IMG/VR virus record: IMGVR_UViG_3300034279_001754
Span: 62,001-126,000 of that record
DNA length: 64,000 nt
Reading direction: 5' to 3' (one strand)
From: a virus
The first letter of the stretch is position 1; every line of letters starts with the position of its first letter. Below the pieces are notes generated by a model that saw only the letters and a program-made list of their open reading frames with translations, searched no databases and was not told where the DNA came from. This document shows positions 31,170 to 57,848 of this stretch, in pieces. A program made the position numbers and the translations under genes.

Positions 31170-31248
31170 AACCCATTTGTGATCATGATCTTAGTCTCCT
31201 CAGCAGAAAGGAATTTCTTAAGAGAAGATAAGGATGTGTCGTCTTTAT
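31170..31248 (-). CDS. Primase/helicase-type ATPase, exon 2
   Basis: 79 nt internal exon: (Y)KDDTSLSSLKKFLSAEETKIMITNG(L). The LKKFLSAEETKI helix resembles the segment between Walker B and sensor in D5/P4-type helicases (L-K-x-L-x-x-x-D/E). Flanked by introns 1 and 2; the frame only makes sense after splicing. Confidence 0.6.
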
Positions 31249-31550
31249 CCTATTGTTCGGTCAAACTTCGTTACAGTTCAACCCGAGGTTCCCCTCAGCT
31301 ACAGGTTTCCCAGTAGAGCAGACTATATCTTCATCCCTACTTTCATAGGGAGCTTCGCGTTTCCCCTCACTTGAGGGTACGGAGTAAACTCCTAGTCGTT
31401 GAGCCTCTTTAACATGATGGTACCATATTGAAGTTGGCTGCTGATTGCCCATTGTTTCATCCTCTAGGATTATTAGTTAGTGTTGAGCCAACTACCCGAG
31501 GCTCTTAGGGGTTTCCAGCAAATAGCGAAGTTTTACTTGCGCAAAAGTCT
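31249..31550 (-). ncRNA. Group I intron 1
   Basis: 302 nt. P1 is clear: exon end TTGCGT pairs with intron GCGCAA with the terminal U-G pair. P element ATTTGCTGGAAACCCCTAAGAGCC, Q element ATCAGCAGCC, R element CAACGACTA and S element AAGATATAGTCT are textbook group I. The predicted 3' end (GG before ATAAAG) allows a P10 pairing with CTTTT near the 5' end. No intron ORF of note. Confidence 0.85.
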
Positions 31551-32481
31551 ACGCAATGTCACTCATCGCAAAGGACTTAACACCAAATCGTTCTTCAGTG
31601 GACTTAAAAGTCCAGATTGAAAATCCGCATTTGGAAAAAGCAGCGGTCATACTGTTAAAGCATTCGGATTTCCCAAGTCCAGGATCCTTACCAACTACAA
31701 CCCCTGCCATACGGGCAGTATGTTGAACTGCTTTGTCTTTACCTGGTGGGAGGTGATTAGACCTACCTACACCGATCCTCCCAATAATTAGCTTGAGAAT
31801 TTCTAACTCAGCTTCTGGAAAAATCGTGAATACATCCGACAATTTAACCTGACGAAGCACAGGATCAAACCAATCCCTGTCCGGGACCCAAATCCGGGGA
31901 TTAGTTACAACAGTTCCCCCCAACCTAGCCATCGGATCAAACGTATGGGCAAAATCAAACTCTGGGTAGAAATTTTTCGATTGGCTGATTTTCTGCATCT
32001 TCAACAGACGGGCCGTAAAAGAAGCTAGATCGCTATCGCCTGGTTTCGGACGGTGTAGCGGCTCCCAGAAAGTTCGAACTTCATCTTCGCACAACCCAGG
32101 ATAAAACACCTTCTCAATGTCTTCAAAATCTGCCATTTCGGTGATGTCTTGAAGTGGTTTGAAGGTATGGGGATACTTAATCCCTTTGACTTCCGGGGGG
32201 GCCGCAGGTTTTAGGATCCGGTGATTAACGTGGGGTGCGCCTTCTACGAGGTCTAGGATGTAACCCTTCGCCTTTAGTAGGGCAATACCCTTATTATACA
32301 ACTCACTTACCCTGACAGGCTCTTTTTTCTTCTTACCTTTCTTGTCTTCGGAGTCTTTTGGATTCTCCCCCTCGTCTTTTTCTGAGGAAAAAACCCTAGC
32401 CTTCTTCAATTCTTGGGCTTGATTGAAAATGGCGATTTCTTGTTTGGTACTCCCTGTACCACCTGAATAGGGGTCTGGCAT
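31551..32481 (-). CDS. Primase/helicase-type ATPase, exon 1 (Walker A)
   Basis: 310 codons plus one base. N-terminal 75 residues are Lys/Glu-rich. Walker A is VVGKDPGLGKSE near residue 264, followed by a strand and KSTEERFGVKSFAMSDIA; splicing continues with YKDD, a Walker-B-like acid pair. Motif order (A in exon 1, acidic pair at the 1/2 join, motif-C-like in exon 3) fits SF3/D5-type primase-helicases, the replicative helicase role. Without splicing the frame stops 1 codon into intron 1. Confidence 0.7.
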
Positions 32482-32538: not shown

Positions 32539-32560
32539 CTAGTTTTAATCCGGGTCAGTT

Positions 32561-32744
32561 CCGATAGAATTTTGCTAACCTAAGTTAACAATGCACAGGT
32601 ATTAATACCTGAGGGGCTATCTCCCAAAGTCTCAAGAATTCTTGAGACGCTTTTTACCCAGATATTCTGGGCACCATTTATGTCTCTATTGACACAATGG
32701 CTATCATCAGTATTTAGTAGCGATTCTACTACTGTTTAAGAACC
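32561..32744 (-). mobile_element. IS607 deletion derivative (MITE) retaining omega-RNA end
   Basis: 184 bp. Positions 32561-32708 match the tnpB-side end of the complete element (43177-43324) with one visible mismatch, and 32709-32744 match its tnpA-side end (44902-44937) exactly. Everything between (most of tnpB, all tnpA) is missing. Flanked by GG like the full copy. It lies harmlessly between a stop codon and its terminator. Contains both palindromes of the putative omega-RNA scaffold. Confidence 0.85.
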
Positions 32745-41133: not shown

Positions 41134-41789
41134 CAGGACCACCCCCTATTGCGTACTTTTCGGTGTTGGGGCGCCTTCTTCTTATTTTTTATGTCGGTGT
41201 TCTTTTCTAGGGAATCCAACGACTTCTCGTCCATCCTATAGGTACACACCCAGCCCTGCTCAGTAGGTAAGATCTCAAATAGGAACTTGTATTTATCAAA
41301 TTTAAATGAGCCAGAAAAGGTTCCGTCCTCGTCTTGCAGGAAATTATTCGTTGGAGACGGAAAATTCCCGGACCTATCCCTTATCGTATCCACCTTCTCA
41401 CCAAACACACTATAAATAACTGCTGACAGAACCTTCTGGGCTCTTTCAGACGAACTCAAATTATCTTCAACAAAGTCTAATGATTCCTCTTGCCCATTAG
41501 AAAAAATACCACCCAAGTCAAGGTGCTCTATGGATTCAGGATCAGGCCAAAAATCAGGCTCTACTTTACTTAGCAATTCGATGGCTTCATCTAGCTCCCA
41601 ATTTTCTAACTCACCATCTATAGAAAACTTAGAAAAAGCCGACAGCAACGATACATCCCCATCCTGGAAGCAATGGCTAAAATGCTCAGAGTAAGTCTCA
41701 GGAACGCATTCAAAATCCCCACGACTAGCTTCGTAAAGAAGACGAGCCATAGGGAGTGCTTTTGCTAGGTATGCTGAATCGGGATTCAT
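41133..41789 (-). CDS. Hypothetical protein, paralogue of 5557..6183
   Basis: 218 residues. Shares LYEASRGDFECVPETYSEHFSHCFQDGDVSLLSAFSKFS and VIYSVFGEKVDTIRDRSGNFPSPTNNFLQDEDGTFSGSFKFD with the protein at 5557..6183, plus an acidic centre; here there is an additional Lys/Arg-rich tail (NKKKAPQHRKVRNR). First gene of the tail unit, after a GGGTAAAA box and four 14-bp repeats. Function unknown. Confidence 0.6.
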   Translation of the reverse strand: MNPDSAYLAKALPMARLLYEASRGDFECVPETYSEHFSHCFQDGDVSLLSAFSKFSIDGELENWELDEAIELLSKVEPDFWPDPESIEHLDLGGIFSNGQEESLDFVEDNLSSSERAQKVLSAVIYSVFGEKVDTIRDRSGNFPSPTNNFLQDEDGTFSGSFKFDKYKFLFEILPTEQGWVCTYRMDEKSLDSLEKNTDIKNKKKAPQHRKVRNRGWS

Positions 41790-41907: not shown

Positions 41908-42876
41908 TCAAGTAGAAACCGGAATTTCCAAACAAATCTTAGCAAAGGCCTTTACTGCCTGGTCGTAATGGTCGTTTCTAGTATTGTGCTCAGGATTGTT
42001 GATTTCGGAATAAAAAGCTTTGTCCCATAGCAACTCATCAATGTTCCATTTGGGGTTTGGTTCACACAAGTTAAACAACTCGATGGGGCTACCTTTTACG
42101 GCATTGTCACACATATCCCCGGCAGCAGCTTTGTGCTTTGCCAGCTCACTAGGGTGCCCAATGTCAACTTTCATCCTATGTTTAGCCCACTCAGCAACGC
42201 CAATTTCCCCGTTAAGTTGCTCTTGGATTTTTTCATTGGGGCGACATGCTCGTGTGTTTGAGAAGTAAATTTGGTTTTTATCATCGCACAACTGAGTCCA
42301 ATCTCTATCAACAGTGTGAAGCAAGATTTGGCGTTTGTGAATAACGTCGCTGGGTTCCCCCTTGTGGGATGCCCTACAGATACTGCCTGCTATGTCATCA
42401 GCTTCATAACCAAGACGCCAAAACCACGGAAAATACATTTGGCAGTAATTCCTACCTTCATTGTAGACAAACCAGAATGCATCTGATTTCTCACTCCGAG
42501 TCCCCTTATAGTGAGTGGCAAGTTCTTTGACATCGACTCCCCCAGCTGCCGCATAATCGACCCATGCTTGTTGGACTACTTCGGATTCTTTCATGAAATC
42601 ATCCCTCCAGTAGTTATTTGTTTCTGGATTGCGATAATCTGCAGCAAACACAATACGGTAAGGGTGTCTCTTCATGAACTGTGGACCGCGATTTACGAAA
42701 AGTGCCCAAGCTCCACGAACTAGCTTCTTTTCGACTTCTTTGCTGAAGGATCCTTCAATTTTTGATTCATACCAACCCAAAACAGCAAAGCACATGACGT
42801 TGAAGTCAATGACCAAAAGGGGGCTAGGGGAAGTCTTTAAGACGATAGTTTTTTCGAGTTTGGGCCTGTCCGTCAT
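41908..42876 (-). CDS. 5'-3' exonuclease / RNase H (FEN-PIN family)
   Basis: 322 residues. Acidic metal-site motifs of the FEN/T4 RNase H superfamily are in order: LLVIDFNVMCF (first Asp), FAADYRN, GTRSEKSDAFWF, YEADDIAGSI (central acidic cluster), HTVDRDWTQLCDD, and GDMCDNAVKGS (helix-hairpin-like DNA-binding element). Likely removes RNA primers or flaps in phage replication, together with the ligase. Overlaps the DUF551 gene by ATGA. Confidence 0.75.
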   Translation of the reverse strand: MTDRPKLEKTIVLKTSPSPLLVIDFNVMCFAVLGWYESKIEGSFSKEVEKKLVRGAWALFVNRGPQFMKRHPYRIVFAADYRNPETNNYWRDDFMKESEVVQQAWVDYAAAGGVDVKELATHYKGTRSEKSDAFWFVYNEGRNYCQMYFPWFWRLGYEADDIAGSICRASHKGEPSDVIHKRQILLHTVDRDWTQLCDDKNQIYFSNTRACRPNEKIQEQLNGEIGVAEWAKHRMKVDIGHPSELAKHKAAAGDMCDNAVKGSPIELFNLCEPNPKWNIDELLWDKAFYSEINNPEHNTRNDHYDQAVKAFAKICLEIPVST

Positions 42877-43100
42877 CTTGGCATGGGGAGATCAATGTAG
42901 TATGTTGGAAGTCCGACTTCCTGCTCTTGGAATCTAGAGTCTGGGAGGCTTAGCCATTCCCCGGACCTGAATTCCCACACATCACAATCCACCATTGAGA
43001 AAGTTCCGTCATTGGCAGGGAAAGCTACAAGGTAATCTTTGTCCGTTGTGGGATAATCTTCGGCGATTTTCCAAAATCCTTTTACGATCTGATTGTTCAT
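42873..43100 (-). CDS. DUF551-like small protein
   Basis: 75 residues: GFWKIAEDYPTTDKDYLVAFPANDGTFSMVDCDVWEFRSGEWLSLPDSR...VGLPTYYIDLPMPR, matching the DUF551 layout (W-x-x-x-x-x-x-P...YLV...W...PTHWxxLPxP). Common in phages; function unknown. Its ATG overlaps the stop of the severed thyX 3' end by ATGA, so it was originally coupled to thyX. Confidence 0.65.
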   Translation of the reverse strand: MNNQIVKGFWKIAEDYPTTDKDYLVAFPANDGTFSMVDCDVWEFRSGEWLSLPDSRFQEQEVGLPTYYIDLPMPR

Positions 43101-43178
43101 TGATTTGAGAGTTGATTTTGAAGCGTAGTTACTATGGACTTGAGGTCTTCAATTTCCTTGTGCAGGATGGAGATCTCC
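43097..43178 (-). pseudogene. Severed 3' end of thyX (beyond the IS607 insertion)
   Basis: Minus strand after the element reads GG-AGATCTCC..., encoding EISILHKEIEDLKSIVTTL... QLSNQ and a stop. Joining it to thyX at one GG gives the uninterrupted frame ...LLYKDK-EISILHKEIED... This is a coiled-coil-like tail now detached from thyX and no longer translated with it. Confidence 0.8.
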
Positions 43179-43324
43179 GATAGAATTTTGCTAACCTAAG
43201 TTAACAATGCACAGGTATTAATACCTGAGGGGCTATCTCCCAAAGTCTCAAGAATTCTTGAGACGCTTTTTACCCAGATATTCCGGGCACCATTTATGTC
43301 TCTATTGACACAATGGCTATCATC
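43179..43324 (-). ncRNA. Candidate omega-RNA scaffold at the tnpB end
   Basis: In TnpB transposons the 3' end of tnpB and the element end encode the guide RNA, with the guide read from flanking DNA. This segment holds a 14-bp palindrome at 43213-43226 and a 20-bp perfect palindrome at 43245-43264, and is the part conserved in the MITE. The guide for this copy would be the host sequence following the terminal GG, starting AGATCTCC. Inferred from the family; limits uncertain. Confidence 0.45.
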
Positions 43325-44407
43325 TTGTATAATTTTAGAACCCCCTAAAGAATAGTTGATTCTTCCGGTCCAAGACAAAGTTTTTGATGTGTAGGCTTCA
43401 TTTACAATTAACAGTAATTTATTAAACTCTTCACATTTATTCTTCAAAAAACATTTAAATCTATAATGTGACCAAGTTAATAAAGAACGTGCGGTTTTTG
43501 AATTTAGTTTTCTCTTACCTCTTTTAACCATTTGGCTAACGTCAAATGATGGTAAAAAGATAATGTCAAAATGTTCAACTAGAAATTTGGAAATTTTATG
43601 ATGCATTTCATCAACGAGATTTTTAATCTTGTTTCTCATTCTTTTAATCGCTTTTCCGATCCTTTGTTTTTGCTTTGAAGTTGATTTTGATTTTTTTGAA
43701 ATCAGGTTATCCAAATGATGGCAAAGTCTCGTAATTCTTCCAATGTCCCCATTTCCCAAAAGTCCAGAAAATTCTGGATTATAAAAAGTTTGGAAAGTTC
43801 GGATTCCTGGATCCAAAGCAACAACTCTAGTTTGGTTCTCGCTAAGAGTCGTTGCTTGCTCATAAGGAATAATAAGATAATAATTGCCATTGTCTAATGA
43901 CAATCTTGAATCCATAATTTTTTGAGGCAATTCCTCACTTATTTTCAATTCACCTAAAATAGTATGATAAACTCCTTTTTCCTTTATCGCGGATTTTGGA
44001 ATGTAAATCGTTTGCTTACCATCCTTCCTACTCCTATAACTAACTTTGTGCCATTTGTCTTTTGTTATTCCTTTATTTTTTCTCTTACACATAGAGAACG
44101 CTTTGCAGCAGTCTCTAATCGCAACAGATTTTATTTGATAGGGAACATCGGACGACCATTCTGGGAGTAATTTTAGTAATGGAGTTTTTATAGTTTTCCA
44201 ATTTGTATTTTGTCCACTTTCATTTAAAAATTTAACTGTTTCATTAAAAGCAAATCTAGAAGCCCCAAACCAATTATTAAGAATTGATTTTTGGGTCTGG
44301 GTTGGGTAAATCCTTATCTTCTTTGATTTGATTTTTATACTTTCGCATCCCGTGAATTCTACAAGAGAAGACGTGGATGATTGAAAGAATGTCGGATACG
44401 AGTTCAC
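43196..44407 (-). CDS. tnpB: TnpB RNA-guided nuclease, rearranged RuvC site
   Basis: 403 residues if started at GTG 44407; the conserved part begins KSKKIRIYPTQTQKSILNNWFGASRFAFN. RuvC-I D199 is in VALDPGIRTF; RuvC-III D370 is in NRDINGARN. At the canonical RuvC-II Glu (E-D-L-N-V) this protein has P-S-F-D-V; a Glu appears instead in VNEAYTSKT (E337), the rearranged site described for Fanzor and a subset of TnpBs. The zinc-finger cysteines are absent (SLSWTGR..., SLGGSK). Frame is intact. Start uncertain: no ATG near the conserved domain. Confidence 0.8.
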   Translation of the reverse strand: MNSYPTFFQSSTSSLVEFTGCESIKIKSKKIRIYPTQTQKSILNNWFGASRFAFNETVKFLNESGQNTNWKTIKTPLLKLLPEWSSDVPYQIKSVAIRDCCKAFSMCKRKNKGITKDKWHKVSYRSRKDGKQTIYIPKSAIKEKGVYHTILGELKISEELPQKIMDSRLSLDNGNYYLIIPYEQATTLSENQTRVVALDPGIRTFQTFYNPEFSGLLGNGDIGRITRLCHHLDNLISKKSKSTSKQKQRIGKAIKRMRNKIKNLVDEMHHKISKFLVEHFDIIFLPSFDVSQMVKRGKRKLNSKTARSLLTWSHYRFKCFLKNKCEEFNKLLLIVNEAYTSKTLSWTGRINYSLGGSKIIQDDSHCVNRDINGARNIWVKSVSRILETLGDSPSGINTCALLT

Positions 44408-44870
44408 TTTCGGGGCTACTTGCAATTTGGTTGAGAACCACGAGTTCTCCACCGTTTTTAACGATGAGATACTCAACGAGTTCAAATCCGAATCTACAAA
44501 GTCTGTCACGCTCGGCAACCACAAGTTTGATTGAATTTCCTTGCAATAATCGTTCCAGAATGGTACGCAAACCTTTTCGTTTAAAATTGAGTCCAGAGCC
44601 AACATCAGAGATGATCTCCGCTCCTGGGTACTTGGAGATGAGATAATTTTTCTGATTGTTGAGGTCGTCTTTTTGTCTAACACTAGAAACTCTACAGTAA
44701 AGAATTGTTTGCAAACTATTTTGTTTTTGTTGTATAAAGGACTCAATGTTGAATCTTCTCTGTCCAGAAGGGGTTTTAATTGTATCAATAATACCTTCGT
44801 CGGCATATTTTCTAAGAGTATTTGGGTGTAAGCCCAGTTGTTTACGAGCCTCCTTTAATGTTACATACAT
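44277..44870 (-). CDS. tnpA: IS607-family serine recombinase TnpA
   Basis: 197 residues. MerR-like helix-turn-helix at the start (YVTLKEARKQLGLHPNTLRKYADEGIIDTIKTPSGQRRF), then the resolvase catalytic domain: LYCRVSSVRQKDDL with Ser62, ISDVGSGLNFKRKGL, AERDRLCRFGFE, and the C-terminal FSCRIHGMRKYKNQI characteristic of IS607 TnpA. Overlaps tnpB in a different frame. Intact, so the element may be active. Confidence 0.9.
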   Translation of the reverse strand: MYVTLKEARKQLGLHPNTLRKYADEGIIDTIKTPSGQRRFNIESFIQQKQNSLQTILYCRVSSVRQKDDLNNQKNYLISKYPGAEIISDVGSGLNFKRKGLRTILERLLQGNSIKLVVAERDRLCRFGFELVEYLIVKNGGELVVLNQIASSPESELVSDILSIIHVFSCRIHGMRKYKNQIKEDKDLPNPDPKINS

Positions 44871-44921
44871 ATTTATTTAGTGGTATTTGTTATTTGACAT
44901 TAGTATTTAGTAGCGATTCTA

Positions 44922-45668
44922 CTACTGTTTAAGAACCTTATCCTTGTAGAGAAGGGTGCCTGTTTGAGCGTCAAACAACGAATCGTAAATCGTGGGGAAT
45001 TGAGTCGCAAATACCGAACGTACAGCTCTTGCAAGTTCTACGTGTTCCCACTGAGCTACCCCCTGATCGTCCCTTACGTTGATGTAATGGATGAAAGAAC
45101 GAACGTTACCGGTGATGTAAAGACGGGTATATACACCTTCAGGGAGAACAAAACGTGCTAGTTCTTTGGCGATACCGCGCCCAAGGAGGTTATTATAGGA
45201 AGAAATCGCAGCTTTGTAAGCAAACTCAAACTCAGCCCACATGAAGTCAGTTAGACTATTATCTTCGGCGACAAAACTATTTTGCCGGTTCTTGGTATCC
45301 TGAACTCTCGCTTCTTCGGGCATGTAGAATAGGTCCTTGTAGGTAGGGAGACCATTGGTGTAGTTCCCCATGAAACCTTGATCTTCATACCTCCCAGAAA
45401 ATTGCTGAAAGCAAAAAGACCGGTGCCTTAGTGCCTGAATTGAGATAGCCAGAGGGGTGATGACTTCGACTGACATTGTCGCATTTTCAAACACACTCCA
45501 ATGTCCATGTTTAGCGCAATGCTTTAGTAGACCCGAGATTTTAGGGTTGCTTTGATCTTTGCTTGTCACCCTCGCAATGTATGCAATGTGCTCCTCAGCA
45601 TTGGGGGTAACGGTAACGAGACGGGACTTGCTAGACCCCTCAATAAACCAGGGATTGTTATTTTCCAT
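44922..45668 (-). CDS. thyX: Flavin-dependent thymidylate synthase ThyX, 3' end replaced by IS607
   Basis: 248 residues from ATG 45668. Makes dTMP from dUMP with FAD and methylenetetrahydrofolate. The ThyX motif RHRSFCFQQFSGR (RHRxxSxxxxSxR) is present, and ISIQALRHR, ARFVLPEGVYTRLYITGNVRSFIHYINVR complete the fold. The catalytic core is intact; only the last four residues (VLKQ) and the stop come from the IS607 end, replacing a native tail of about 26 residues. Likely still functional. Confidence 0.9.
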   Translation of the reverse strand: MENNNPWFIEGSSKSRLVTVTPNAEEHIAYIARVTSKDQSNPKISGLLKHCAKHGHWSVFENATMSVEVITPLAISIQALRHRSFCFQQFSGRYEDQGFMGNYTNGLPTYKDLFYMPEEARVQDTKNRQNSFVAEDNSLTDFMWAEFEFAYKAAISSYNNLLGRGIAKELARFVLPEGVYTRLYITGNVRSFIHYINVRDDQGVAQWEHVELARAVRSVFATQFPTIYDSLFDAQTGTLLYKDKVLKQ

Positions 45669-45676
45669 TAGTAAAT

Positions 45677-46297
45677 TCAAAAATTCAAATCAATTTCATC
45701 TGCGCTGGCTTTAGCCGGATCGTACAAACCAGACATTAATTCCAGTACTTTTAAGGTGGAAAGACAGTCGGACATGGCATCGTGCGCCGGAAGTGCTGAG
45801 AGATTTGGCAACCTTTGCCACTTAAATCCATCCTTCTTATCGCTCCACTCACCACTCCACTCCGAGTATCTATCCATGGCACAGGATACTCCTGAAGTCT
45901 TAGGGGGTTCGAGATTGTACTTCTTGTACAGGTGCCATAAAAGCTTCAAGTCAAAATCCGCGTTATAGGCAATAAGGTGCTTGCCATCGAGGATAAACGA
46001 CAGCATTTTGGCGATTTGCGGAAAAATCGGGGCATCCATAACCATTTCATTGGTGATTCCGTGGATGTCGATTAGCTCTTGTGATAGTGGCTTACTCGGC
46101 TTCACAAGCATAGAAAAGGTTGGGCGACCCTGCATGTTGACGACAGAGATTTGCACGACTTCGGTATCTGGATCCTTGCTAAGGGTGCCGGTAGTTTCAA
46201 CGTCAAGGATTAGGGATTTTCTGTCCCCTAGGCGTTCTTTAGCCCAATTTTCGGAGTTCTTCTTAAACTCTGCTAGTTTTTCTTCTGATGGTTTCAT
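45677..46297 (-). CDS. DnaQ-like DEDDh 3'-5' exonuclease
   Basis: 206 residues. ExoI LILDVETTGTL (Asp, Glu), ExoII HLIAYNADFDLKLL (Asp), ExoIII LPAHDAMSDCLSTLKVLE (His, Asp): full DEDDh set, with HGIT as usual between. Proofreading or RNase T-like trimming. A promoter stands immediately upstream (46319-46346), leaving a leader of about 15 nt. Likely co-transcribed with thyX. Confidence 0.88.
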   Translation of the reverse strand: MKPSEEKLAEFKKNSENWAKERLGDRKSLILDVETTGTLSKDPDTEVVQISVVNMQGRPTFSMLVKPSKPLSQELIDIHGITNEMVMDAPIFPQIAKMLSFILDGKHLIAYNADFDLKLLWHLYKKYNLEPPKTSGVSCAMDRYSEWSGEWSDKKDGFKWQRLPNLSALPAHDAMSDCLSTLKVLELMSGLYDPAKASADEIDLNF

Positions 46298-46318
46298 TTT
46301 TGAGGTTTACTCATTGCT

Positions 46319-46346
46319 ATTGTAGCAAGTTGCCATGAAAAGTCAA
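46319..46346 (-). promoter_or_regulatory. Promoter of the exonuclease-thyX unit
   Basis: Minus strand TTGACT (46341-46346), 16-bp spacer TTTCATG...ACTTGC, -10 TACAAT (46319-46324). Nearly the same sequence as the hli promoter. Confidence 0.65.
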
Positions 46347-46522
46347 TGCTCTTCCTCGTACTCCCTGCCGATTCGCTCTCTCCATTCTAAAACCTTGGTG
46401 AAAACATTGATCAAGTCCGTAGAGAAACCTCTTACGTGCTCTATTTCCTCGGGACCATCCCATAAGTCAAACTCATAGTATTCTTTGCCGTTGGAGAAGC
46501 CGTTTTTAATTTCAATTTTCAT
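46343..46522 (-). CDS. Small hypothetical protein (59 aa)
   Basis: From ATG 46522: MKIEIKNGFSNGKEYYEFDLWDGPEE then IEHVRGFSTDLINVFTKVLEWRERIGREYEEE. Overlaps the upstream gene by 11 nt. Acidic, mixed alpha/beta. Its stop overlaps the next promoter's -35. Not recognised. Confidence 0.55.
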   Translation of the reverse strand: MKIEIKNGFSNGKEYYEFDLWDGPEEIEHVRGFSTDLINVFTKVLEWRERIGREYEEEH

Positions 46523-46871
46523 GATTAACTTTTGGTAGAATTCCGTAATCAGTTGACCCAAATAATCCCCTATCAATTGATTTACCCCCCATCCTTCTGT
46601 AAGAGTAGACCAGTCCGGTGAATCTTATTCGTTCGTTTTGGCTGGGTAACTTACCTATTTGCTGTAATTGCTTTTTAAGTATCCACATGTGGTCAATAGC
46701 TATAGATTCCCCAAATGGCACTGGGGTGACAATGAGGTTTACAAGTAAGACGGAATCAAGGTCTTTCCTCTTCTCATGAGATTTGAATTCTTTCACCCTA
46801 CCGGAGCATTCTACGGTGGTCCCATTTAAGAACTCAAGGTCGGTTCTTTGTCGGATTACGGAGTTTGACAT
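46512..46871 (-). CDS. Hypothetical protein (119 aa), possibly OB-like
   Basis: From ATG 46871 (MSNSVIRQRTDLEFLNGTTVECSGRVKEFKSHEKRKD). A TGC-extended TATAAT (46891-46896) lies upstream with a poor -35, so the frame above 46871 is probably leader. The strand-rich layout LNGTTVECSGRVKEF...VLLVNLIV...RIRFTGLVYSYRR is compatible with an OB fold, but this is weak. It is divergent from the plus-strand DUF3223 gene. Confidence 0.5.
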   Translation of the reverse strand: MSNSVIRQRTDLEFLNGTTVECSGRVKEFKSHEKRKDLDSVLLVNLIVTPVPFGESIAIDHMWILKKQLQQIGKLPSQNERIRFTGLVYSYRRMGGKSIDRGLFGSTDYGILPKVNHEN

Positions 46872-46912
46872 AGTACCACTCACTAAAGTAATTATAGCAC
46901 ATACGACTAAGG

Positions 46913-46920
46913 GGGTAAAA
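46913..46920 (+). promoter_or_regulatory. GGGTAAAA box on the plus strand
   Basis: The octamer stands 24 nt before ATG 46945 of the only plus-strand gene, in the matching orientation. Confidence 0.5.
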
Positions 46921-46944
46921 GTATTGTTAGCAAACCAAGAAACC

Positions 46945-47697
46945 ATGACGATAGGTAAAACCACTTTTGGCCTCAATAAAGGTGAGTATTCCGATAAAAT
47001 AACCAGGATCATTGATAACCATAGGACCAATAGCCGCTTGATTGGGGTTCCGAAAGATTTTGTTCTCCGTTCATGCCGACTGACGGAACAGTGGATGAAG
47101 CTATCGAATGAGAACGATGTAGAAGTTTACATCCGTAGCATCGACATTGCTGGCGGAAGAAAAATCAAAATGATTTCCCTAGAAAGAGGGACAACCAAAC
47201 AGCCGGTTGGCAAACTAAAGCTGATAGACATGTTGTACCCGCCTAAAAAAATCGGAACCGCCCCATCTCCGGAGGAAAAACATTATAATGCCGTTCGAGC
47301 ATCAATGAGGCTAGCGGTCAATGATCAGTTAAAGGGGTTTAGATCGTCTATTTCACTACCAATTACCTGCATGATAACTGGAAAGACCATTAGGAATGGG
47401 GTCAAGACAGACGTTGATCATGTTTTGTTGAGTTTCTCTGAAATTGCAGACTCTTTCATGGCTTTTAAAGGTTTGGTTTATGCTGATGTGCCCCTAGTGG
47501 GCCCTCCCACGGCTAAAAAGTTTAAAGACCAGCAACTATGGAAAGATTGGCAAGAGTTTCATAGAGGTGCTGCCAAATACGCATTGGTCTTAGCTAGTGC
47601 TAACCGAAGCAAAGGATGTGGGAATTACACGACTCCCGGACACTTATACGGTTCCTTCTCAAAGCAGGGGCCAGAAGATCTAGCTCTAGACTTTTGA
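46945..47697 (+). CDS. DUF3223 / HNH-like endonuclease-related protein
   Basis: 250 residues on the plus strand, opposite to every other gene here. Start ATG 46945 chosen because a GGGTAAAA box lies 24 nt upstream; the upstream open frame overlaps the divergent gene. The C-terminal part has the DUF3223 pattern: CMITGKTIRNGVKTDVDHVLLSFSEIADSFMAFKGL ... WKDWQEFHRGAAKYALVLASANRSKG (VDH motif, FH, final N). Such proteins occur as homing-endonuclease-like mobile genes in phages. It contains a GLNKGEYSDKITRII start element. Nuclease activity is inferred. Confidence 0.6.
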   Translation: MTIGKTTFGLNKGEYSDKITRIIDNHRTNSRLIGVPKDFVLRSCRLTEQWMKLSNENDVEVYIRSIDIAGGRKIKMISLERGTTKQPVGKLKLIDMLYPPKKIGTAPSPEEKHYNAVRASMRLAVNDQLKGFRSSISLPITCMITGKTIRNGVKTDVDHVLLSFSEIADSFMAFKGLVYADVPLVGPPTAKKFKDQQLWKDWQEFHRGAAKYALVLASANRSKGCGNYTTPGHLYGSFSKQGPEDLALDF

Positions 47698-47786
47698 TTT
47701 CGATCACCCAATCCTGGGATTAGGAAGGGTCACATCTACGGAGGGGTCGCATGACGGTATAACCCAATCTCGCTGAGTTAAAGCGA

Positions 47787-48380
47787 TTAATCAGCGGGAA
47801 TCAAGCTAAGAAGCATATCAACAAATTCCCCTGGAAGATGCATCACCCTGGCTTCAGCAGCGAAACTGCGAAGGATAGCCGGGTCGGGCTCTACTGAGTT
47901 AAACACTGAGGATAAAGCAGCGTAGAAGGGGCGAGAATCCCCACCGCGAATAACCTCATTCAATTCAATTTGGAGTCCCAAGGCATTTACTGGGTCAGAA
48001 ACAAGGGCTTGTGTAATGACACCCTTAAACTCGGGGGAACTTTGTGACAGCAACTTAAACGCCACCCAGTCAGGTTGAGGGGCCGGGTTGTTAATAATGT
48101 CCCACTCGGAGATTTCCTGTTCGGTTGCATCACGGATAGTCCAAGTCTGCTCCCATTTGCCGTCCAAATTTTGCACGGGTTCAGATTCACTGATTCGCTG
48201 AGTGCGAGGCTCGGTTAGGAGGGGGGGTTCGGTTGAGGCCACGAAGAAACAGTGGAATGGCTCCAAGTCCCCTTCCGTCGGGTTTATAGGGAAGGAAATG
48301 TTCGGGTTATCCGCCCGCAGCTGGGTGGGACTATAGGGGTATACTAAGTCCGAGTTGGGCCTTAAAAGAATTAAATTCAT
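47787..48380 (-). CDS. Tail-fibre assembly-type protein
   Basis: 197 residues. VYPYSPTQLRADNPNISFPINPTEGDLEPFHCFFVASTEPP is the usual start of phage tail-fibre assembly/DUF4376-like proteins; the rest carries LDGKWEQTWTIRDATEQE and a helical C-terminal domain of about 75 residues. It converges with the plus-strand DUF3223 gene; the 89-bp gap between them holds an imperfect CCCAATCC/GGATTAGG hairpin. Likely a chaperone or small tail protein. Confidence 0.6.
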   Translation of the reverse strand: MNLILLRPNSDLVYPYSPTQLRADNPNISFPINPTEGDLEPFHCFFVASTEPPLLTEPRTQRISESEPVQNLDGKWEQTWTIRDATEQEISEWDIINNPAPQPDWVAFKLLSQSSPEFKGVITQALVSDPVNALGLQIELNEVIRGGDSRPFYAALSSVFNSVEPDPAILRSFAAEARVMHLPGEFVDMLLSLIPAD

Positions 48381-48443
48381 TTGAAAGTTAGTTGTTGTGT
48401 TTGTTTAGTTGGGTTGTTCCGAAATCTCATTGGGCCAAATGGT

Positions 48444-49370
48444 CTATAGTGCCGAAATGGGGTAGCGAATGATAACGATGCCGGAGCCTCCACTTAGGGT
48501 GTCGGAGAAGCCACCCCCTCCACCTCCTCCACCCGTGTTAGCCGTTCCGGAAAAGTTACCGGGCTGAGAGCGGTTGTTAAATCCACCGTTGCCACCGCCT
48601 GCCGTTCCAGTGCCGGGACCACCGCCTGTACCAAATATGTCACTTCCTCCCCCCCCTCCGCCCCTGGCGGTTGGTGTTCCATTGATTGAGCTGGTAACTC
48701 CCGCACCACCGTTACCCCCTCTAGCATTACTCCCAGTACCGGTTACGCCCCCACCAACACCACCCGCACCACCACCACCACCACCCGCACCCGACGTGTT
48801 GCCAACGCCTCCACCCGTGCCCGCGCCTCCGGCATAGCCCTGACCAGTTGTGCCTGCACCGTTTATGGCTAGCGCACTTGCACCGCCTCCACCACTGCCG
48901 CCAGATGACGCTACAACGGCTTGTCCACCGTCTCTAAAGGAACCACCACCACCACCACCAAGAGAAACTATTCCAGCAAATGATGAAGAAGATCCTTGAT
49001 TCCCCCTGCGGTCAAAGGGGTCATCTTGAGAGTTTAAGCCGCCAAGACCAACGGTCACTGTGTAAAGTTGTGGCGTTAGGATTAGTGGCGGTTCAGCGGG
49101 TGCCCCACCCCCGGACAATTCACCAGCCACTGAACAGCGATAGCCCCCTCCGCCACCCGCACCAGCGGTAGCAATGCTCCTCCCCCCCGCACCTCCGCCA
49201 CCTATAATAAGGTACTCGCATGTAATGGGGGACCCCCCTACTCTAAGTATACCGGTAGAAAGAAAAGTATGCACCCTATAAGTTACCCCTCCGACATTTA
49301 TCACAGTTATGATACCCCCGGTTACCCCTGCCCCCCCGTTAGCAGCTAATAAAGCTCTTCTGCTATTCAT
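48444..49370 (-). CDS. Glycine-rich fibre/adhesin protein
   Basis: 308 residues from ATG 49370, 1 nt after the upstream stop. Begins MNSRRALLAANGGAG, then CEYLIIGGGGAGG, and runs of poly-Gly separated by short loops, ending GGSGIVIIRYP. This YLVIGGGGxG...GGSGIVIIRY layout is that of glycine-rich domains on tail tips; poly-Gly runs can form polyglycine-II bundles as in phage adhesins. Probably receptor-binding. Confidence 0.65.
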   Translation of the reverse strand: MNSRRALLAANGGAGVTGGIITVINVGGVTYRVHTFLSTGILRVGGSPITCEYLIIGGGGAGGRSIATAGAGGGGGYRCSVAGELSGGGAPAEPPLILTPQLYTVTVGLGGLNSQDDPFDRRGNQGSSSSFAGIVSLGGGGGGSFRDGGQAVVASSGGSGGGGASALAINGAGTTGQGYAGGAGTGGGVGNTSGAGGGGGGAGGVGGGVTGTGSNARGGNGGAGVTSSINGTPTARGGGGGGSDIFGTGGGPGTGTAGGGNGGFNNRSQPGNFSGTANTGGGGGGGGFSDTLSGGSGIVIIRYPISAL

Positions 49371-49371
49371 A

Positions 49372-52300
49372 TTATGTATTCCTCCCCAGTAAGAAAGCAA
49401 CATCGATAACCGTTGTTCCACCAACTACCGTGATGATGATTGTTTCGGTTTCCCCTACCGTTGGTGAAATCGCCGAGCCTCCGTCCCATCTCACCGTGAA
49501 GCCAGTGTTACCGGGAAACCAATTTATGACCCCGGATGTATATGCAAAAGAGAGTACAGCTCTCCAGACTGCCCCTGTGGGAATACTCGCTAAGTTGGAA
49601 AGGTTTACTATCGAAGCACCTGCAATAGCCGCACTAGTTACAAACTCATTTCCCAGAGTTGCGTTTACAGTGTAGGTCCCGGCGGATGCCGTAACTGTTG
49701 TTCTAGTTGAGTATTGGGTGCCGTAGGTCACGCCGGAGATTGAACCCCCTGTAAAAGTGACGCTTGCAGAACCCAGAGTAACCCCCGAGATTGCCCCACC
49801 AGTGATGGCTACGTTGGTAGCAGCCTGCGCTGCCATGGTTCCTGCGTCCAAGATTGTGCTAAGTGTCTGAGTACCGGTATGGTTAGCGCGACTCAAAAGG
49901 AAGGCATCAGTCTGATTCGCAGTTGCGCCATCTGCAACACCGTTAAGCTTAAACTTATCAGCTGCACTCATGGTCCCGCGAGCGGAAGTTGTCGCTGCTG
50001 CGATAGACAAAGTCCTCACATAACTCCAAATTCCTGCCCCGTTTGCACTGGCATTGCCGGTAACACTTAAAGGCCCACCGACTTCAACGGCCACGTTGGT
50101 AACATAACGACTACCGGTGTACTCCTTGACAGCGAACTGAGTTGGTACGGTATTTCCATCAGCAACCCCCGTACTTGCGATTAAGCTTGTATTATTGCTA
50201 ACCTCACGAAGCTGCTCGCCGACTGTGCTAATACCACCGTTTCTGCTGAATGGGCCTATGAAATTCAAACCAGACAGGTTAAACTGATCTGTATTAATTG
50301 TAACAGCACCAGTGGTACCGTCTACATTAAAACTGCTTCCGACTGAAAAATTCCCAAGTTCGTCGGTGTTGCTGCTGAACACTCTGCCATTGTTCGTTTC
50401 AACTATATGGTTGGCAGGGACTGGTACCCCTCCATTATATGGCAAGGCGTCATAGTTTGTGCCGGAGCCGACATATTCGAAAGTGTGGCTGGGGGCGCTA
50501 ACTTGGCTCCGGTTACGGAAGTCAATAACTTGGTTAGGGTCAATCGTATTTTTCAGGCCTCCGTTGGTCCCGGAATAGAAGTTAATCCGATAACCAGCTT
50601 GAGTAGGTGCGTTAAATGGGACCGGATTTCCGTTAATGTCAATCGGAACACTTCCTGTAATCACGTAGGCCGAAGTTGGGCAAATAAAGTTTAGACCCTC
50701 AACTGTAACGGTTCCAGAAGACGCCCCAGGCAAAGGGGTTACTGTTGTGATCGTTACGAGTCCAGTATTTTTAATGTAGGTACAATCTGCAACACCGTAG
50801 TTGGTCGATCCTATGACGGCAGTACCACCTGAAACATATTCGTGTTCTGGACCCGAAGGAGATGCCGCAGCTTGATAAGTGAAGGTACTGGCGCCGACCT
50901 TTGTATAGGAAAACGCTGTAGCACCACCACTTGGGAAAGAAAGTTGAGGGAATAGTAAAATACCAGAACTAGGGCGGCTAGAGGAGTTACAAGTGAAGAA
51001 TAGATTCTGCATCGTCACTTGTGCGCCCAAGGTGGGGGCATAACCTGCAGCTGTCAAGACCGTAGAGCCAGTTAGGTTGTTATAGGTACAACTTGTGACG
51101 GGATAAGTGTTGGCGCCGATGGTAACAGTTCCGCCACCGGTATACTCGTGTTTGATGGAGCTGGTGTCTAAGGTTACCGTAAAGCTAGACCCTGCGGATG
51201 TGCCCCCTCTGGCCGTAATCGTAACGGCATTTCCAGGACTCCCTGCGCTTCCTGCGGTCGGGTATTTGAGTTGTCTACCTAATCTATTAGCACCCAGGTC
51301 TATTACATCAATTTCAGTATCACCTTGGCGAATAACTGTGTAAGTTCCTGTGGCAGTTCCGGAAATGTTAACTGGAGATCCACCTTGAGTCAAGGAGACT
51401 TTGAAATCCACCGTTGTGAAGCCACTGGAAATCACAAAGTATTTCGTCCCTGTTACTATATTGTCTGGGAACGTGCCTTCCGAACAGTTGAAGACAACTT
51501 GGTCGTCTATTGAGAGCCCATGCCCCAAAGGGTCAATGCAAGTTATCAGATCGGTAGAAACATTAAATGTAACACCTTTTTCAATTCTTGACGCACCAAA
51601 TGCGGACACTCGTGCTTTAGCAGTATATAGGGAGGATGGAGAGTAACCATCTGCCATTAATCCGTATGTACCAAAGTCACTAGTACCACCACCGGAAAGG
51701 TTAACTTGACCCCCGCTTTCAGTGCGGACATGGTAGTTACAGAAAGTCCCGAAGAACGAAACTAGCTGCGCGTAACCATCATTTTTGACAAGGCAACCCG
51801 GACCACCGAGGTTAACCTGCGTGAAGCTGTCCACCACCATTGAACGAATGGGGCTATTTTTAGCACAGGCTGCACCATCAACAATGATTCCACCACCTGT
51901 ATCCCCAGTTGACTGGGATCCTGCGTTACCGTTGTCGTCTTCTGCAGTTAGAGAGGTGCAGTTTTGGATGTAGGGGGACTTGAAAATATAAGCCCCAGGG
52001 CCGACAGCTCCCAATGCAGTGTTATCAGCGGTTTCGTTAAAGCTGACAGACCAGGCCTGCTTCCCAGTGGAACTATCTGCCTGGTGCCCAGCAAATTCCA
52101 GACCCCAACACCAGAATCCACTATCTACTTTGAAGATGTCATTATATTCTTGACCTGCGGCAGGTTGTATTCGAGCGTTACGAAGACCCTTGCCCAGAAT
52201 ACCAACGTCACGCTTCCAACGAATAGGGAGGCTTGGCTCAGTATAAAGACCAGGGCCAACTTCTACTAGGTCACCAGGTTGGGCTACTACTGCTGCTGCG

Positions 52301-52980
52301 CCAAGCGTGAGTAAAGGTTCGCCTGGGGAAGTTCCATCGTTGCTATCGCTAGCGTAAATACTCTTGGAAACATAAACCCTGTTACTGTCCCTGAACTTCA
52401 GAAGTTGTTGTTGTAGGGTGGCAATGTTTGCGTTTGCAGTAGTTAAACCTGAACTTACAGTCCCTATGTTGGTGCTTAAGAGACTGATTGCCTTCGGTGT
52501 GGCTGCCAATGTCTCAGAAACATCTGACAAAGATGACGAAAGCTGGACTTGCCCCTTTTGGGAAATGGATGCGTTCAGGTTGAATCTTTGGGAATTTCCG
52601 GCAGAATCTGTGAAGATAAGGAAAGGGTTACTAGCCGTATTGGTAAGAGCCAGGTCCCCCAAATCCCCGGTACCGCCTCCACCACCTTGGATAGCAATCC
52701 AAGCAGACCCGCTCCAAATTTTGAGTTCTTCATTAGCAGTATCATACCACATTTCCCCGATGCAGTTTCCTGCAAATAGTGGTGGCAAGACCCCGGAATT
52801 AGGGGGTACAGGGCCAATGTGACAAGGCCCAACTTTCCGAAGGTTACCGGCTGTGTCAGAGAAATATAAACCTGGCTCAGCAGGATTAATGTTCGCAGCC
52901 AGTTGCCCCGGTAAAAGAGTTGCAGGGTTGGGGCGCTTCTTTGCCTCTAGACTCCTTAGGATTTGGATTGTTTGGGGCAT
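49372..52980 (-). CDS. Giant tail-fibre protein A (beta-helix)
   Basis: 1202 residues. N-terminal attachment module LLPGQLAANINPAEPGLYFSDTAGNLRKVGP, trimeric repeat region, then a beta-helix start KSIYASDSNDGTSPGEPLLTLGAAAVVAQPGDLVEVGPGLYTE typical of pectate-lyase folds. It continues with CxxLTAEDDNGNAG and a distal beta-rich head. Shares design with 54094..57804 and 57849..62672. A GGGTATAA variant of the late box precedes it at 36 nt. Confidence 0.7.
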   Translation of the reverse strand: MPQTIQILRSLEAKKRPNPATLLPGQLAANINPAEPGLYFSDTAGNLRKVGPCHIGPVPPNSGVLPPLFAGNCIGEMWYDTANEELKIWSGSAWIAIQGGGGGTGDLGDLALTNTASNPFLIFTDSAGNSQRFNLNASISQKGQVQLSSSLSDVSETLAATPKAISLLSTNIGTVSSGLTTANANIATLQQQLLKFRDSNRVYVSKSIYASDSNDGTSPGEPLLTLGAAAVVAQPGDLVEVGPGLYTEPSLPIRWKRDVGILGKGLRNARIQPAAGQEYNDIFKVDSGFWCWGLEFAGHQADSSTGKQAWSVSFNETADNTALGAVGPGAYIFKSPYIQNCTSLTAEDDNGNAGSQSTGDTGGGIIVDGAACAKNSPIRSMVVDSFTQVNLGGPGCLVKNDGYAQLVSFFGTFCNYHVRTESGGQVNLSGGGTSDFGTYGLMADGYSPSSLYTAKARVSAFGASRIEKGVTFNVSTDLITCIDPLGHGLSIDDQVVFNCSEGTFPDNIVTGTKYFVISSGFTTVDFKVSLTQGGSPVNISGTATGTYTVIRQGDTEIDVIDLGANRLGRQLKYPTAGSAGSPGNAVTITARGGTSAGSSFTVTLDTSSIKHEYTGGGTVTIGANTYPVTSCTYNNLTGSTVLTAAGYAPTLGAQVTMQNLFFTCNSSSRPSSGILLFPQLSFPSGGATAFSYTKVGASTFTYQAAASPSGPEHEYVSGGTAVIGSTNYGVADCTYIKNTGLVTITTVTPLPGASSGTVTVEGLNFICPTSAYVITGSVPIDINGNPVPFNAPTQAGYRINFYSGTNGGLKNTIDPNQVIDFRNRSQVSAPSHTFEYVGSGTNYDALPYNGGVPVPANHIVETNNGRVFSSNTDELGNFSVGSSFNVDGTTGAVTINTDQFNLSGLNFIGPFSRNGGISTVGEQLREVSNNTSLIASTGVADGNTVPTQFAVKEYTGSRYVTNVAVEVGGPLSVTGNASANGAGIWSYVRTLSIAAATTSARGTMSAADKFKLNGVADGATANQTDAFLLSRANHTGTQTLSTILDAGTMAAQAATNVAITGGAISGVTLGSASVTFTGGSISGVTYGTQYSTRTTVTASAGTYTVNATLGNEFVTSAAIAGASIVNLSNLASIPTGAVWRAVLSFAYTSGVINWFPGNTGFTVRWDGGSAISPTVGETETIIITVVGGTTVIDVAFLLGRNT

Positions 52981-53043
52981 GGTGACTTAGGGTTCGTTTT
53001 TAGTCCTTATTATGAGTTATACCCGACATGTCTTAATGGGAGG

Positions 53044-53721
53044 TCACCAGGTTTGAAAGCTTTCGCTTTGGCAGTAGGTCCGCAGACTTTCTACACTATT
53101 TTGCGAAGCGGCGGTTGTGAGCTTCTCACTAGCAGCAGCTCTCACGGCTGCTCTCCAGGTAACCCACTCTCCAGGGATTGCCTTGCCAGTTTCAGACTGA
53201 CGCACTATGTACCAGTCGGACGGTTGCAACAGCGCATAGGCTTTATCGTTGACTAGGCTAGTGACATAATTTTGGGCGCCAGCCAGGTCCAAATCAATAG
53301 GGAAGGACGACCATACAAACTCAGTGCCGTCCCAATAGAGGGATGTATTCGGTGAAGGTTGATCAGGGGGGGCCACCTCTGTTGAATTAGCAGGCTGGGG
53401 CCAGCCCTTGGCCGTGACAACAATCGGGGATCCAACCGGTGTGGCGGTGCTATAGAAAGTTCTAGGGTTCTTTGCACAGTGAATGATATTTTCCGCATCT
53501 AAGATTTGAGGTTCCCAGGGGTCAACATTGGTAATTTGCTCTTGGGGCCTAGTAGCACCAGTCTCCGGGTTTGTTTTAAACTCCACCGTCCCCTTGCCCA
53601 ATTCTGTGTTAAACTGAACGGCATGAATTTCAAGATCCACGGAAGCCATGTCAACCCCGAAGGCTGCATCTCCGCCAAGAACTACCACTTGGTCGATGGG
53701 GACTATTGTAATCTGTGACAT
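53044..53721 (-). CDS. Tail-fibre assembly protein (XkdW-like end)
   Basis: 225 residues. The C-terminal LLQPSDWYIVRQSETGKAIPGEWVTWRAAVRAAA has the pattern DWxxxRxxExGxxIPxxWxxYRxxxR of phage tail-fibre assembly chaperones. N-terminal beta-rich module. A GGGTAAAA box lies 21 nt before ATG 53721. Sits between two fibre genes. Confidence 0.7.
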   Translation of the reverse strand: MSQITIVPIDQVVVLGGDAAFGVDMASVDLEIHAVQFNTELGKGTVEFKTNPETGATRPQEQITNVDPWEPQILDAENIIHCAKNPRTFYSTATPVGSPIVVTAKGWPQPANSTEVAPPDQPSPNTSLYWDGTEFVWSSFPIDLDLAGAQNYVTSLVNDKAYALLQPSDWYIVRQSETGKAIPGEWVTWRAAVRAAASEKLTTAASQNSVESLRTYCQSESFQTW

Positions 53722-53742
53722 TTTGTTATGTGTGTGAAAGAA

Positions 53743-53750
53743 TTTTACCC
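53743..53750 (-). promoter_or_regulatory. GGGTAAAA box
   Basis: Octamer 21 nt before ATG 53721 on the minus strand; it overlaps the end of the preceding small gene. Confidence 0.5.
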
Positions 53751-54065
53751 GGGTAAGATTTCCCTCAGTTCAACTGGTTGAATGGCATCTCTATTTGCAA
53801 GTCCTTGGGAAGCTTGCAACAGGATCGTGTTCATTAGGTCTGACCTCTCTATAGCCTCATTCCTAAAGATTTGAATTGACGCCGAAGTTTGCCTTTGCTG
53901 GTTGGAGTTTTCAATAAGTAAAAGGGGAAGCAGGTTTACAGCACATTGCCATTCTGCTACTTCTTGACCTGTGTTTGGATTTACCCCTCTTACTTGACAA
54001 AACCAGGAGCATTTATGCTCAATACAATCTTTTTTGATGAGTGGACAATAGTTTTTGTTTTTCAT
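53745..54065 (-). CDS. Cysteine-rich hypothetical protein (106 aa)
   Basis: 106 residues. N-terminal CPLIKKDCIEHKCSWFCQVRGVNPNTGQEVAEWQCAVNLLPLLLIENSNQQRQTSASIQIFRNE: five cysteines suggest a small metal-binding knuckle. The pattern C-P-L-x-K-K-x-C-x-x-x-x-C-x-W...R-G-x-N-P-x-T-G...W-x-C-A looks conserved in phages. Located between fibre genes. Function unknown. Confidence 0.65.
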   Translation of the reverse strand: MKNKNYCPLIKKDCIEHKCSWFCQVRGVNPNTGQEVAEWQCAVNLLPLLLIENSNQQRQTSASIQIFRNEAIERSDLMNTILLQASQGLANRDAIQPVELREILPG

Positions 54066-54093
54066 GGTTGAAGTAGTAGTGTGTTAAATAGTG

Positions 54094-57804: not shown

Positions 57805-57829
57805 CGGATTCCTTCACCTAGTATGGGTA

Positions 57830-57837
57830 TTTTACCC
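57830..57837 (-). promoter_or_regulatory. GGGTAAAA box
   Basis: Octamer 25 nt before ATG 57804 on the minus strand. Confidence 0.5.
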
Positions 57838-57848
57838 GCACCTTGTGC

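What the first reader, a model, noticed from the sequence alone, without database searches (positions are those of the whole stretch)
43196..44407. TnpB with relocated catalytic glutamate and no zinc finger
RuvC-I (DPGIRTF) and RuvC-III (NRDINGARN) are intact, but the RuvC-II motif normally E-D-L-N-V reads P-S-F-D-V. A glutamate sits 51 residues later in VNEAYTSKT, where most TnpBs have Pro or Asp. This is the rearranged site reported for Fanzor and a subset of TnpBs. The CxxC zinc-finger pairs are also missing. A phage-borne member would link the bacterial and eukaryotic (often giant-virus-carried) branches.
Basis: partly seen in the sequence, partly recalled or inferred. Interest (0 to 1): 0.68.

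Follow-up and report, generated by a model that had tools for sequence, protein, structure and literature searches.

The report
Cyanophage Fanzor-like TnpB jumping gene
A virus that probably infects cyanobacteria carries a small jumping gene whose RNA-guided DNA cutter belongs to the bacterial branch thought to have given rise to the eukaryotic Fanzor nucleases, and also carries stripped-down copies that keep only the guide-RNA part.

Summary
The 403-aa frame has an intact RuvC-I (DPG, D199) and RuvC-III (D370), P286 where canonical TnpBs have Glu, E337 at the alternative site, and no CxxC zinc finger. It is neither unique nor a missing link. It is the TnpB of a complete 1,761-bp IS607 element (window 43177-44937, minus strand) and carries the DPG + alternative-Glu fingerprint of the published cyanobacterial "pro-Fanzors". 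Lack of the zinc finger is usual in this clade: 59 of 65 DPG + alternative-Glu rows. In a provisional tree it sits among bacterial pro-Fanzors, with mimivirus Fanzor2 outside on a long branch. The gene probably starts upstream (ATG 44605, dual-coding with tnpA). The right end encodes a guide-RNA scaffold with a covarying pseudoknot. Purifying selection is strong. The likely mechanism is IS607 transposition plus RNA-guided cutting of vacant alleles next to RGG. The least ordinary part was not in the finding: this phage and its relatives carry tnpB-less copies that keep the scaffold, each beside a different flank/guide, and three vacant alleles are seen. Cutting and guide function are inferred, not shown.

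The parts
43177..44937 (-). Complete IS607-family insertion sequence, 1761 bp, GG core dinucleotide at both ends
   Evidence: 1761-bp homologs in L002 (99.2%), L003, L004, L006 (77-78%) with unrelated flanks; ends GGTTCTTAAACAG...CTATCGG
44280..44870 (-). tnpA, IS607 serine recombinase with MerR-type HTH (197 aa)
   Evidence: NF033518 transpos_IS607 177 bits over cut-off 110; Pfam Resolvase and MerR
43196..44605 (-). tnpB (pro-Fanzor type), proposed start ATG 44605, 469 aa; its 5' part overlaps tnpA in another frame
   Evidence: NF040570 guided_TnpB 158.8 bits; overlap with suppressed synonymous change; N-terminal S55 and W56 invariant in A2
43811..43813 (-). D199 codon, RuvC-I DPG
43550..43552 (-). 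P286 codon at the canonical RuvC-II Glu position
   Evidence: aligned with E of VLEDLK in L012
43397..43399 (-). E337 codon, alternative catalytic Glu
   Evidence: aligned with the E of VNVNEYLTTKT of L79; E in 72 of 73 rows
43298..43300 (-). D370 codon, RuvC-III
43177..43287 (-). Right-end guide-RNA scaffold (reRNA/omega-RNA), overlapping the 3' end of tnpB; ends at the element boundary
   Evidence: z-score -4.2; covariation; covariance model hits at the same place in 43 of 69 other loci at E<=1, 32 of 69 at E<=0.01
43233..43237 (-). Pseudoknot 5' strand GATAG (loop of helix 4)
   Evidence: covaries with the right-end terminus
43179..43183 (-). Pseudoknot 3' strand CTATC, just before the GG core
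43157..43176 (-). Presumed guide of the full element (flank, first 20 nt)
   Evidence: inferred from IS607 architecture; flank sequence
44936..44938 (-). RGG motif at the left boundary (AGG), presumed TAM
   Evidence: purine before GG in 7 of 7 phage sites and 7 of 8 bacterial sites
32561..32744 (-). 184-bp tnpB-less mini-element: 36-bp left end + 148-bp right end with whole scaffold
   Evidence: precise vacant site in relative G005 (L024)
32541..32560 (-). Presumed guide of the mini-element; identical sequence follows CGAGG in the vacant site of G005

Best explanation
This is a complete IS607-family insertion sequence in a cyanophage-like genome. TnpA, a serine recombinase, moves it between GG dinucleotides. 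TnpB is a pro-Fanzor-type RNA-guided nuclease using a D199-E337-D370 RuvC triad, with a zinc-less TNB knuckle. The transcript of the right end (scaffold 43177-43287) is the guide RNA, and about 20 nt of flanking phage sequence are the guide. TnpB should cut alleles that lack the insertion (RGG + guide) and spare its own insertion, where the boundary reads CGG. This would favour re-copying of the element by recombination, like a homing nuclease. tnpB-less copies that keep the scaffold and boundary can be inserted by TnpA in trans and could guide TnpB to other vacant alleles. Shown here: element ends, family, motifs, conserved RNA fold, selection, vacant alleles. Inferred: catalysis, guide length, TAM, homing, trans-guiding.
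For: IS607 TnpA and guided_TnpB models over cut-off. Element ends with GG in unrelated flanks. Motifs. AlphaFold model (mean pLDDT 71.6) matches mimivirus Fanzor2 and ISDra2 TnpB (Foldseek E 3.0e-20 and 3.6e-16; VIA Z 23.5 and 25.1). [quoted passage not shown] tnpB core dN/dS 0.14-0.16 in 4 comparisons. Scaffold with pseudoknot: 318 double-change cells against at most 48 when slid. RNA model finds the tnpB 3' end in 43 of 69 other loci at E<=1. Purine before GG in 7 of 7 phage and 7 of 8 bacterial sites. Vacant alleles A, 3 and 5.
Against: No activity, expression or guide processing is shown. L012 is the only canonical-Glu row in the alignment. The closest pair, window vs L002, has dN/dS 0.63 on very few changes, and L002 reads ESYTTKT instead of EAYTSKT. 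Model confidence is moderate, with residues 1-88 mostly disordered. Exact searches found no other vacant RGG target for the full element or site 4: 0 contigs for the full-element pattern; 2 non-element matches without RGG for site 4. The A4 alignment was fitted to the model, which inflates its pair counts.
Confidence: 0.82

Rival explanations
1. A nuclease-dead TnpB (TldR-like) kept by the phage as an RNA-guided repressor.
For: TnpB-derived repressors are known from phages (recalled; no call). The canonical Glu is gone and the zinc finger is lost.
Against: All three acidic residues of the Fanzor-type triad are present and invariant in A2. The gene sits in an intact IS607 with tnpA rather than next to a regulated operon. 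Relatives with the same motifs are multi-copy transposons.
Confidence: 0.06
2. A degenerate, inactive passenger: zinc finger and canonical Glu were lost by decay in a recent phage insertion.
For: Insertion truncates and re-ends thyX. ESYTTKT in the 98% relative L002 and dN/dS 0.63 for that close pair.
Against: Both traits are shared by most of the clade (59 of 65 rows). dN/dS 0.14-0.16 against 71-74% relatives, no stops or frameshifts, scaffold intact.
Confidence: 0.1
3. The tnpB-less right-end copies are only inert debris: MITEs and deletion remnants without guide function (this is a rival to the trans-guiding step only).
For: Sites 3 and 4 have no left end and ragged upstream borders; site 5 uses a tnpB-internal GGTTCTAAAA as left border; one scaffold pair is broken in solo 5. 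3 of the 5 other records with such copies that were tested hold no PF07282 match (G005, G016, G017; all possibly fragments); the matches in G014 and G015 were not classified.
Against: Across phage sites the retained unit always holds at least the structured part and boundary. The same solo sites persist in 3 phage records each (sites 3 and 4). Most other changes keep pairing.
Confidence: 0.65
4. A bridging lineage between bacterial TnpB and giant-virus Fanzor2.
For: Best PDB relative is mimivirus Fanzor2.
Against: The phage clade (5 rows) nests within bacterial pro-Fanzors; L79 is outside on a long branch and keeps the zinc finger.
Confidence: 0.05

Closest known systems
Cyanobacterial pro-Fanzor IS607 TnpBs (Nucleic Acids Res 2023, PMC10711439)
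   Same: DPG RuvC-I, alternative Glu, IS607 TnpA partner, right-end RNA with pseudoknot
   Different: Carried by a phage; no zinc finger, whereas the paper's search expressions required CxxC...CxxC; the sampled relatives reach beyond cyanobacteria
Fanzor2, mimivirus L79 (PDB 9b0l)
   Same: DPG + alternative Glu, IS607 context (PMC3627910 lists mimivirus as ISvMimi), overall fold
   Different: L79 keeps a four-Cys zinc finger; about 22-23% identical; outside the phage/bacterial clade
ISDra2 TnpB (8h1j) and IS607 TnpB ISXfa1
   Same: Fold (Z 25.1 for 8h1j); RNA-guided mechanism with right-end RNA
   Different: Different family branch (recalled); ISXfa1 was not compared here (read in PMC10711439 only)
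Vibrio phage TnpBs (OZ195714, MW824371)
   Same: Alternative Glu, no CxxC, phage-borne, beside thymidylate synthase
   Different: RuvC-I DVG not DPG; no annotated tnpA; 34-38% identical

Membership tests
IS607 insertion sequences | Serine-recombinase TnpA with N-terminal MerR-type HTH | tested here: met
   NF033518 177.1 bits, cut-off 110; Pfam MerR + Resolvase
IS607 insertion sequences | Insertion between matching dinucleotides without terminal inverted repeats or duplications | tested here: met
   GG core; precise vacant site for the mini-element; no vacant allele found for the full copy itself
TnpB / RNA-guided OMEGA nucleases | guided_TnpB family match | tested here: met
   NF040570 158.8 bits, cut-off 100
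TnpB / RNA-guided OMEGA nucleases | Structured right-end RNA with pseudoknot next to the guide | tested here: met
   Covarying fold and pseudoknot
TnpB / RNA-guided OMEGA nucleases | RNA-guided DNA cleavage | not testable with these tools
   needs biochemistry
pro-Fanzor clade | DPG RuvC-I together with alternative Glu | tested here: met
pro-Fanzor clade | Tree position with pro-Fanzors | tested here: met
   Nested with cyanobacterial, Poribacteria and Latescibacterota rows that bear DPG + alternative Glu; quick tree, careful search unfinished
pro-Fanzor clade | CxxC zinc finger as used in the published search expression | tested here: not met
   0 CxxC. This is a search filter of the paper, not its clade definition; 59 of 65 DPG + alternative-Glu rows also lack it
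pro-Fanzor clade | Host is a cyanobacterium | tested here: inconclusive
   Virus record; nearest phage is Synechococcus phage S-CBWM1 by one protein; host not determined
Fanzor2 | Encoded by a eukaryote or its virus | tested here: not met
   Phage-type gene families and bacterial-type tRNA genes; nearest phage S-CBWM1

The most novel reading that the evidence does not exclude
A dispersed OMEGA system in cyanophages. tnpB-less right-end RNA loci, several inside tRNA arrays and so perhaps transcribed and trimmed with the tRNAs, are maintained as trans guides for a pro-Fanzor TnpB. That TnpB is carried by only some phages and would be directed at vacant alleles of co-infecting relatives; for example, the solo right end of G005, L037 and L038 matches an intact tRNA-Met gene of the window phage next to AGAGG.
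Probability: 0.15. Interest if true: 0.75.

Novelty: new member of a known kind. Interest (0 to 1): 0.45.

Why it matters
Pro-Fanzors are the reported source of eukaryotic Fanzors and were described as cyanobacterial. A phage copy under purifying selection shows a vehicle that could move them between hosts. That most sampled relatives lack the zinc finger means a search requiring CxxC misses the larger part of this sample. The vacant and occupied allele pairs in related phages give ready natural substrates to test whether TnpB acts as a homing nuclease, and whether tnpB-less right ends can guide it in trans.

Tried and rejected
Bridge to giant viruses: rejected on tree position (quick tree because the careful search did not finish; several long branches warned about). 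Rfam: no family at E<=1 in 43000-45000. External targets: the site 4 guide (18 nt) hit L039, L046 and two other contigs without RGG; the site 3 guide hit only the three element-bearing records, the own record being left out of that tool; the full-element vacant site hit nothing. G005 does not show a clean vacant site for the full element: the first ~69 nt of its right flank and most of the left flank (thyX) are not matched there. The upstream part of tnpB (residues 1-88 of 469) is mostly low-confidence in the model, so a folded N-terminal domain is not supported; dual coding rests on suppressed synonymous change. Papers: searches (terms TnpB, phage-encoded, homing, bacteriophage, Fanzor; TnpB, standalone, omegaRNA, orphan, reRNA, solo; TnpB, non-autonomous, MITE, IS607, guide RNA, in trans; pro-Fanzor, zinc, IS607, cyanophage, TnpB): in the listings I saw no paper on phage pro-Fanzors or tnpB-less right-end RNAs; subscription journals are mostly not held. 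Only passages or named sections were read: PMC10711439 (outline, passages, section 10, part 1 of section 22), PMC10432273, PMC11423790, PMC3627910 and PMC6293099 (passages).

Full report
Observation. The frame 43199-44407 on the minus strand translates to 403 aa with DPG (D199), FLPSFDVS (P286), VNEAYTSKT (E337) and NRDINGARN (D370). Between E337 and D370 there is one Cys and no CxxC.

What it is. Family models give guided_TnpB (NF040570, 158.8 bits, cut-off 100) and, for the overlapping upstream frame, IS607 TnpA (NF033518, 177.1 bits, cut-off 110). DNA comparison with seven IMG/VR loci shows that similarity starts and stops at about 43177 and 44937 in the six full copies (L002 99.2%, L003-L007 77-78%), with unrelated flanks, except that L004, L005 and L007 share one site. 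The left end reads GG-TTCTTAAACAG and the right end CTATC-GG. This is a whole IS607 element of 1,761 bp. Its left end supplies the last codons and stop of a thyX-like gene (thyX frame 44922-45680; PHROG thymidylate synthase).

Which TnpB. PMC10711439 (passages, section 10 and part of section 22 read) defines pro-Fanzors by DPG plus a Glu six residues before the zinc finger, says they are mostly cyanobacterial with IS607 TnpA, and searched with expressions that required CxxC...CxxC. I took relatives from one scan of genome contigs (145 relatives, best 80 kept, 79 loci), scans of viral contigs and phage records. I parsed 79 loci (58 of the 79 genome loci, 17 viral, 4 phage). Eight rows were dropped as frameshifted, truncated or near-duplicates (L119, L123, L087, L053, L067, L072, L137, L010); the window and the L79 stretch were added, giving 73 rows. 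Of 73, 72 have the alternative Glu, 65 have DPG, 65 have both, and 59 of these 65 have no CxxC. The sample was chosen by similarity to the window, so this describes its neighbourhood, not all pro-Fanzors.

Tree. In the quick tree (SH-aLRT; careful search unfinished) the window and four phage rows form a starred clade (100), inside a starred set (95, drawn open) with Latescibacterota, Poribacteria and cyanobacteria. Mimivirus L79 is outside with branch 2.44. So the phage copy looks like an offshoot of bacterial elements. The nearest cultured phage by one structural-region protein is Synechococcus phage S-CBWM1 (33.9%), so a cyanobacterial host is likely but not shown.

Fold. The AlphaFold model of the 469-aa form (38 sequences; mean pLDDT 71.6, residues 1-17 and 30-88 below 50) matches mimivirus Fanzor2 9b0l (Foldseek E 3.0e-20) and ISDra2 TnpB 8h1j (E 3.6e-16); VIA Z is 25.1 for 8h1j (337 residues, rmsd 4.0) and 23.5 for 9b0l (403, 5.3). 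By sequence the best PDB chain is 9b0l (1.8e-23), with E337 opposite the Glu of VNVNEYLTTKT. E403 in the longer numbering follows strand 397-401, the place PMC11423790 (passages) gives for the Fanzor Glu. I could not measure distances.

Start of the gene. The GTG at 44407 is not present in L003, L004 and L006, whereas an in-frame ATG (44605 in the window) is. Synonymous change in tnpA falls from dS 0.74-0.89 before the overlap to 0.25-0.36 within it in the three window comparisons (0.48 to 0.19 for L003-L006), and 15 of 38 to 41 differences fall on tnpA first/tnpB third positions. The residues S55-W56 are invariant in A2. L79 may share an N-terminal W..P-T..NSW pattern (weak alignment). I infer translation from within tnpA. 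tnpB core dN/dS is 0.14-0.16 in four comparisons; for window-L002 it is 0.63 on very few changes.

Guide RNA. The last 111 nt fold at -36.2 kcal/mol, z -4.2, 0 of 200 shuffles as good. A covariance model from 9 phage copies matched 48 of 74 loci at E<=1, five of them training members; that is 43 of the other 69 (32 of 69 at E<=0.01), at the tnpB 3' end. On that alignment 38 pairs including a pseudoknot (loop GATAG/GATAC/GATTC with terminus CTATC/GTATC/GAATC) give 318 double-change cells against 38-48 when slid, 96.2% paired. The alignment was fitted to the nested helices, so these counts lean towards them; the pseudoknot was not part of the model. On the unfitted 9-row alignment there are 4 pairs with double changes against 0-1 slid.

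Boundary and TAM. The base before the left GG is a purine in 7 of 7 phage sites (A five times, G twice) and 7 of 8 bacterial sites; the right boundary reads CGG in the phage copies. I infer that RGG is the TAM and that CGG protects the occupied allele.

Copies without tnpB. The window holds a 184-bp mini-element (32561-32744): 36 bp left end plus 148 bp right end. The relative G005 (large blocks at about 80-99% identity to the window) has the vacant site CACGAG-GG-AACTGACC. The own record has a third right end at 41470-41583 of the record, outside the window, next to tRNA-Leu. G005 has two solo right ends (171 and 117 bp) and no PF07282 match. Solo 5 is inserted precisely at a GG that is vacant in the own record and begins inside tnpB at GGTTCTAAAA, which resembles the true left end. 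Solo 3, shared by G005, L037 and L038, borders the 3' half of a tRNA gene; the own record has that tRNA-Met intact (L048 11483-11556) with CCCAGAGG before the same sequence. A viral-contig scan for the right-end tip gave 13 stretches and 14 matches: 6 full elements, 7 without tnpB, 1 cut by a contig end (classed). With the own record, 9 of 16 classifiable copies lack tnpB, at 5 sites. In eight bacterial genomes holding relatives, model R2 gave 41 matches (E<=0.01) against 32 tnpB matches (E<=1e-30), so right ends without a strong tnpB match seem to occur there too; I did not inspect those loci.

Mechanism and verdict. Shown: element, family, motif set, conserved RNA, selection, vacant alleles. 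Inferred: D199-E337-D370 cleavage, 20-nt guide, RGG TAM, homing-like retention, trans use of solo right ends. The TnpB is a new, phage-borne member of a known kind. The solo right ends are the part worth an experiment, with inert debris as the likelier reading.

Noticed in passing
window 32561-32744 (-): 184-bp tnpB-less IS607 mini-element that keeps the whole guide-RNA scaffold; vacant site in relative G005
   Followed up: yes
own record G000:C1:41470-41583 (L047), outside the window: Third right-end copy, next to a tRNA-Leu(taa), same site in L039 and L046
   Followed up: partly
L041 / G005 91410-91580 and 97291-97407; L037, L038: Solo right ends in a tRNA array; one starts at a tnpB-internal mimic of the left end, one borders half of a tRNA that is intact in the own record
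   Followed up: yes
L043 500-805 (-): 306-bp element with left end, unrelated middle and right-end scaffold
   Followed up: partly
window 44280-44605: Probable dual-coding overlap of tnpA and the 5' part of tnpB
   Followed up: yes
window 19231-21804 and 21801-22742: Ribonucleotide reductase large chain with an intein and a C-terminal glutaredoxin domain, next to a weak HNH match (under cut-off) overlapping the small-chain frame
   Followed up: partly
window 28902-32481: Primase-like frame matching only the first part of its PHROG (11-273 of 610), followed by a GIY-YIG/NUMOD3 homing-type gene 29981-30664; possibly an interrupted primase
   Followed up: no
window 1943-2860: nadA (quinolinate synthase) in a phage genome
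   Followed up: no
L009, L010 (Vibrio phages): Zinc-less alternative-Glu TnpB with DVG, beside thyA and an HNH gene; the window element likewise sits at a thymidylate synthase gene (thyX)
   Followed up: partly
L048 (own record 42001-62000): 22 tRNA genes predicted in 20 kb
   Followed up: no
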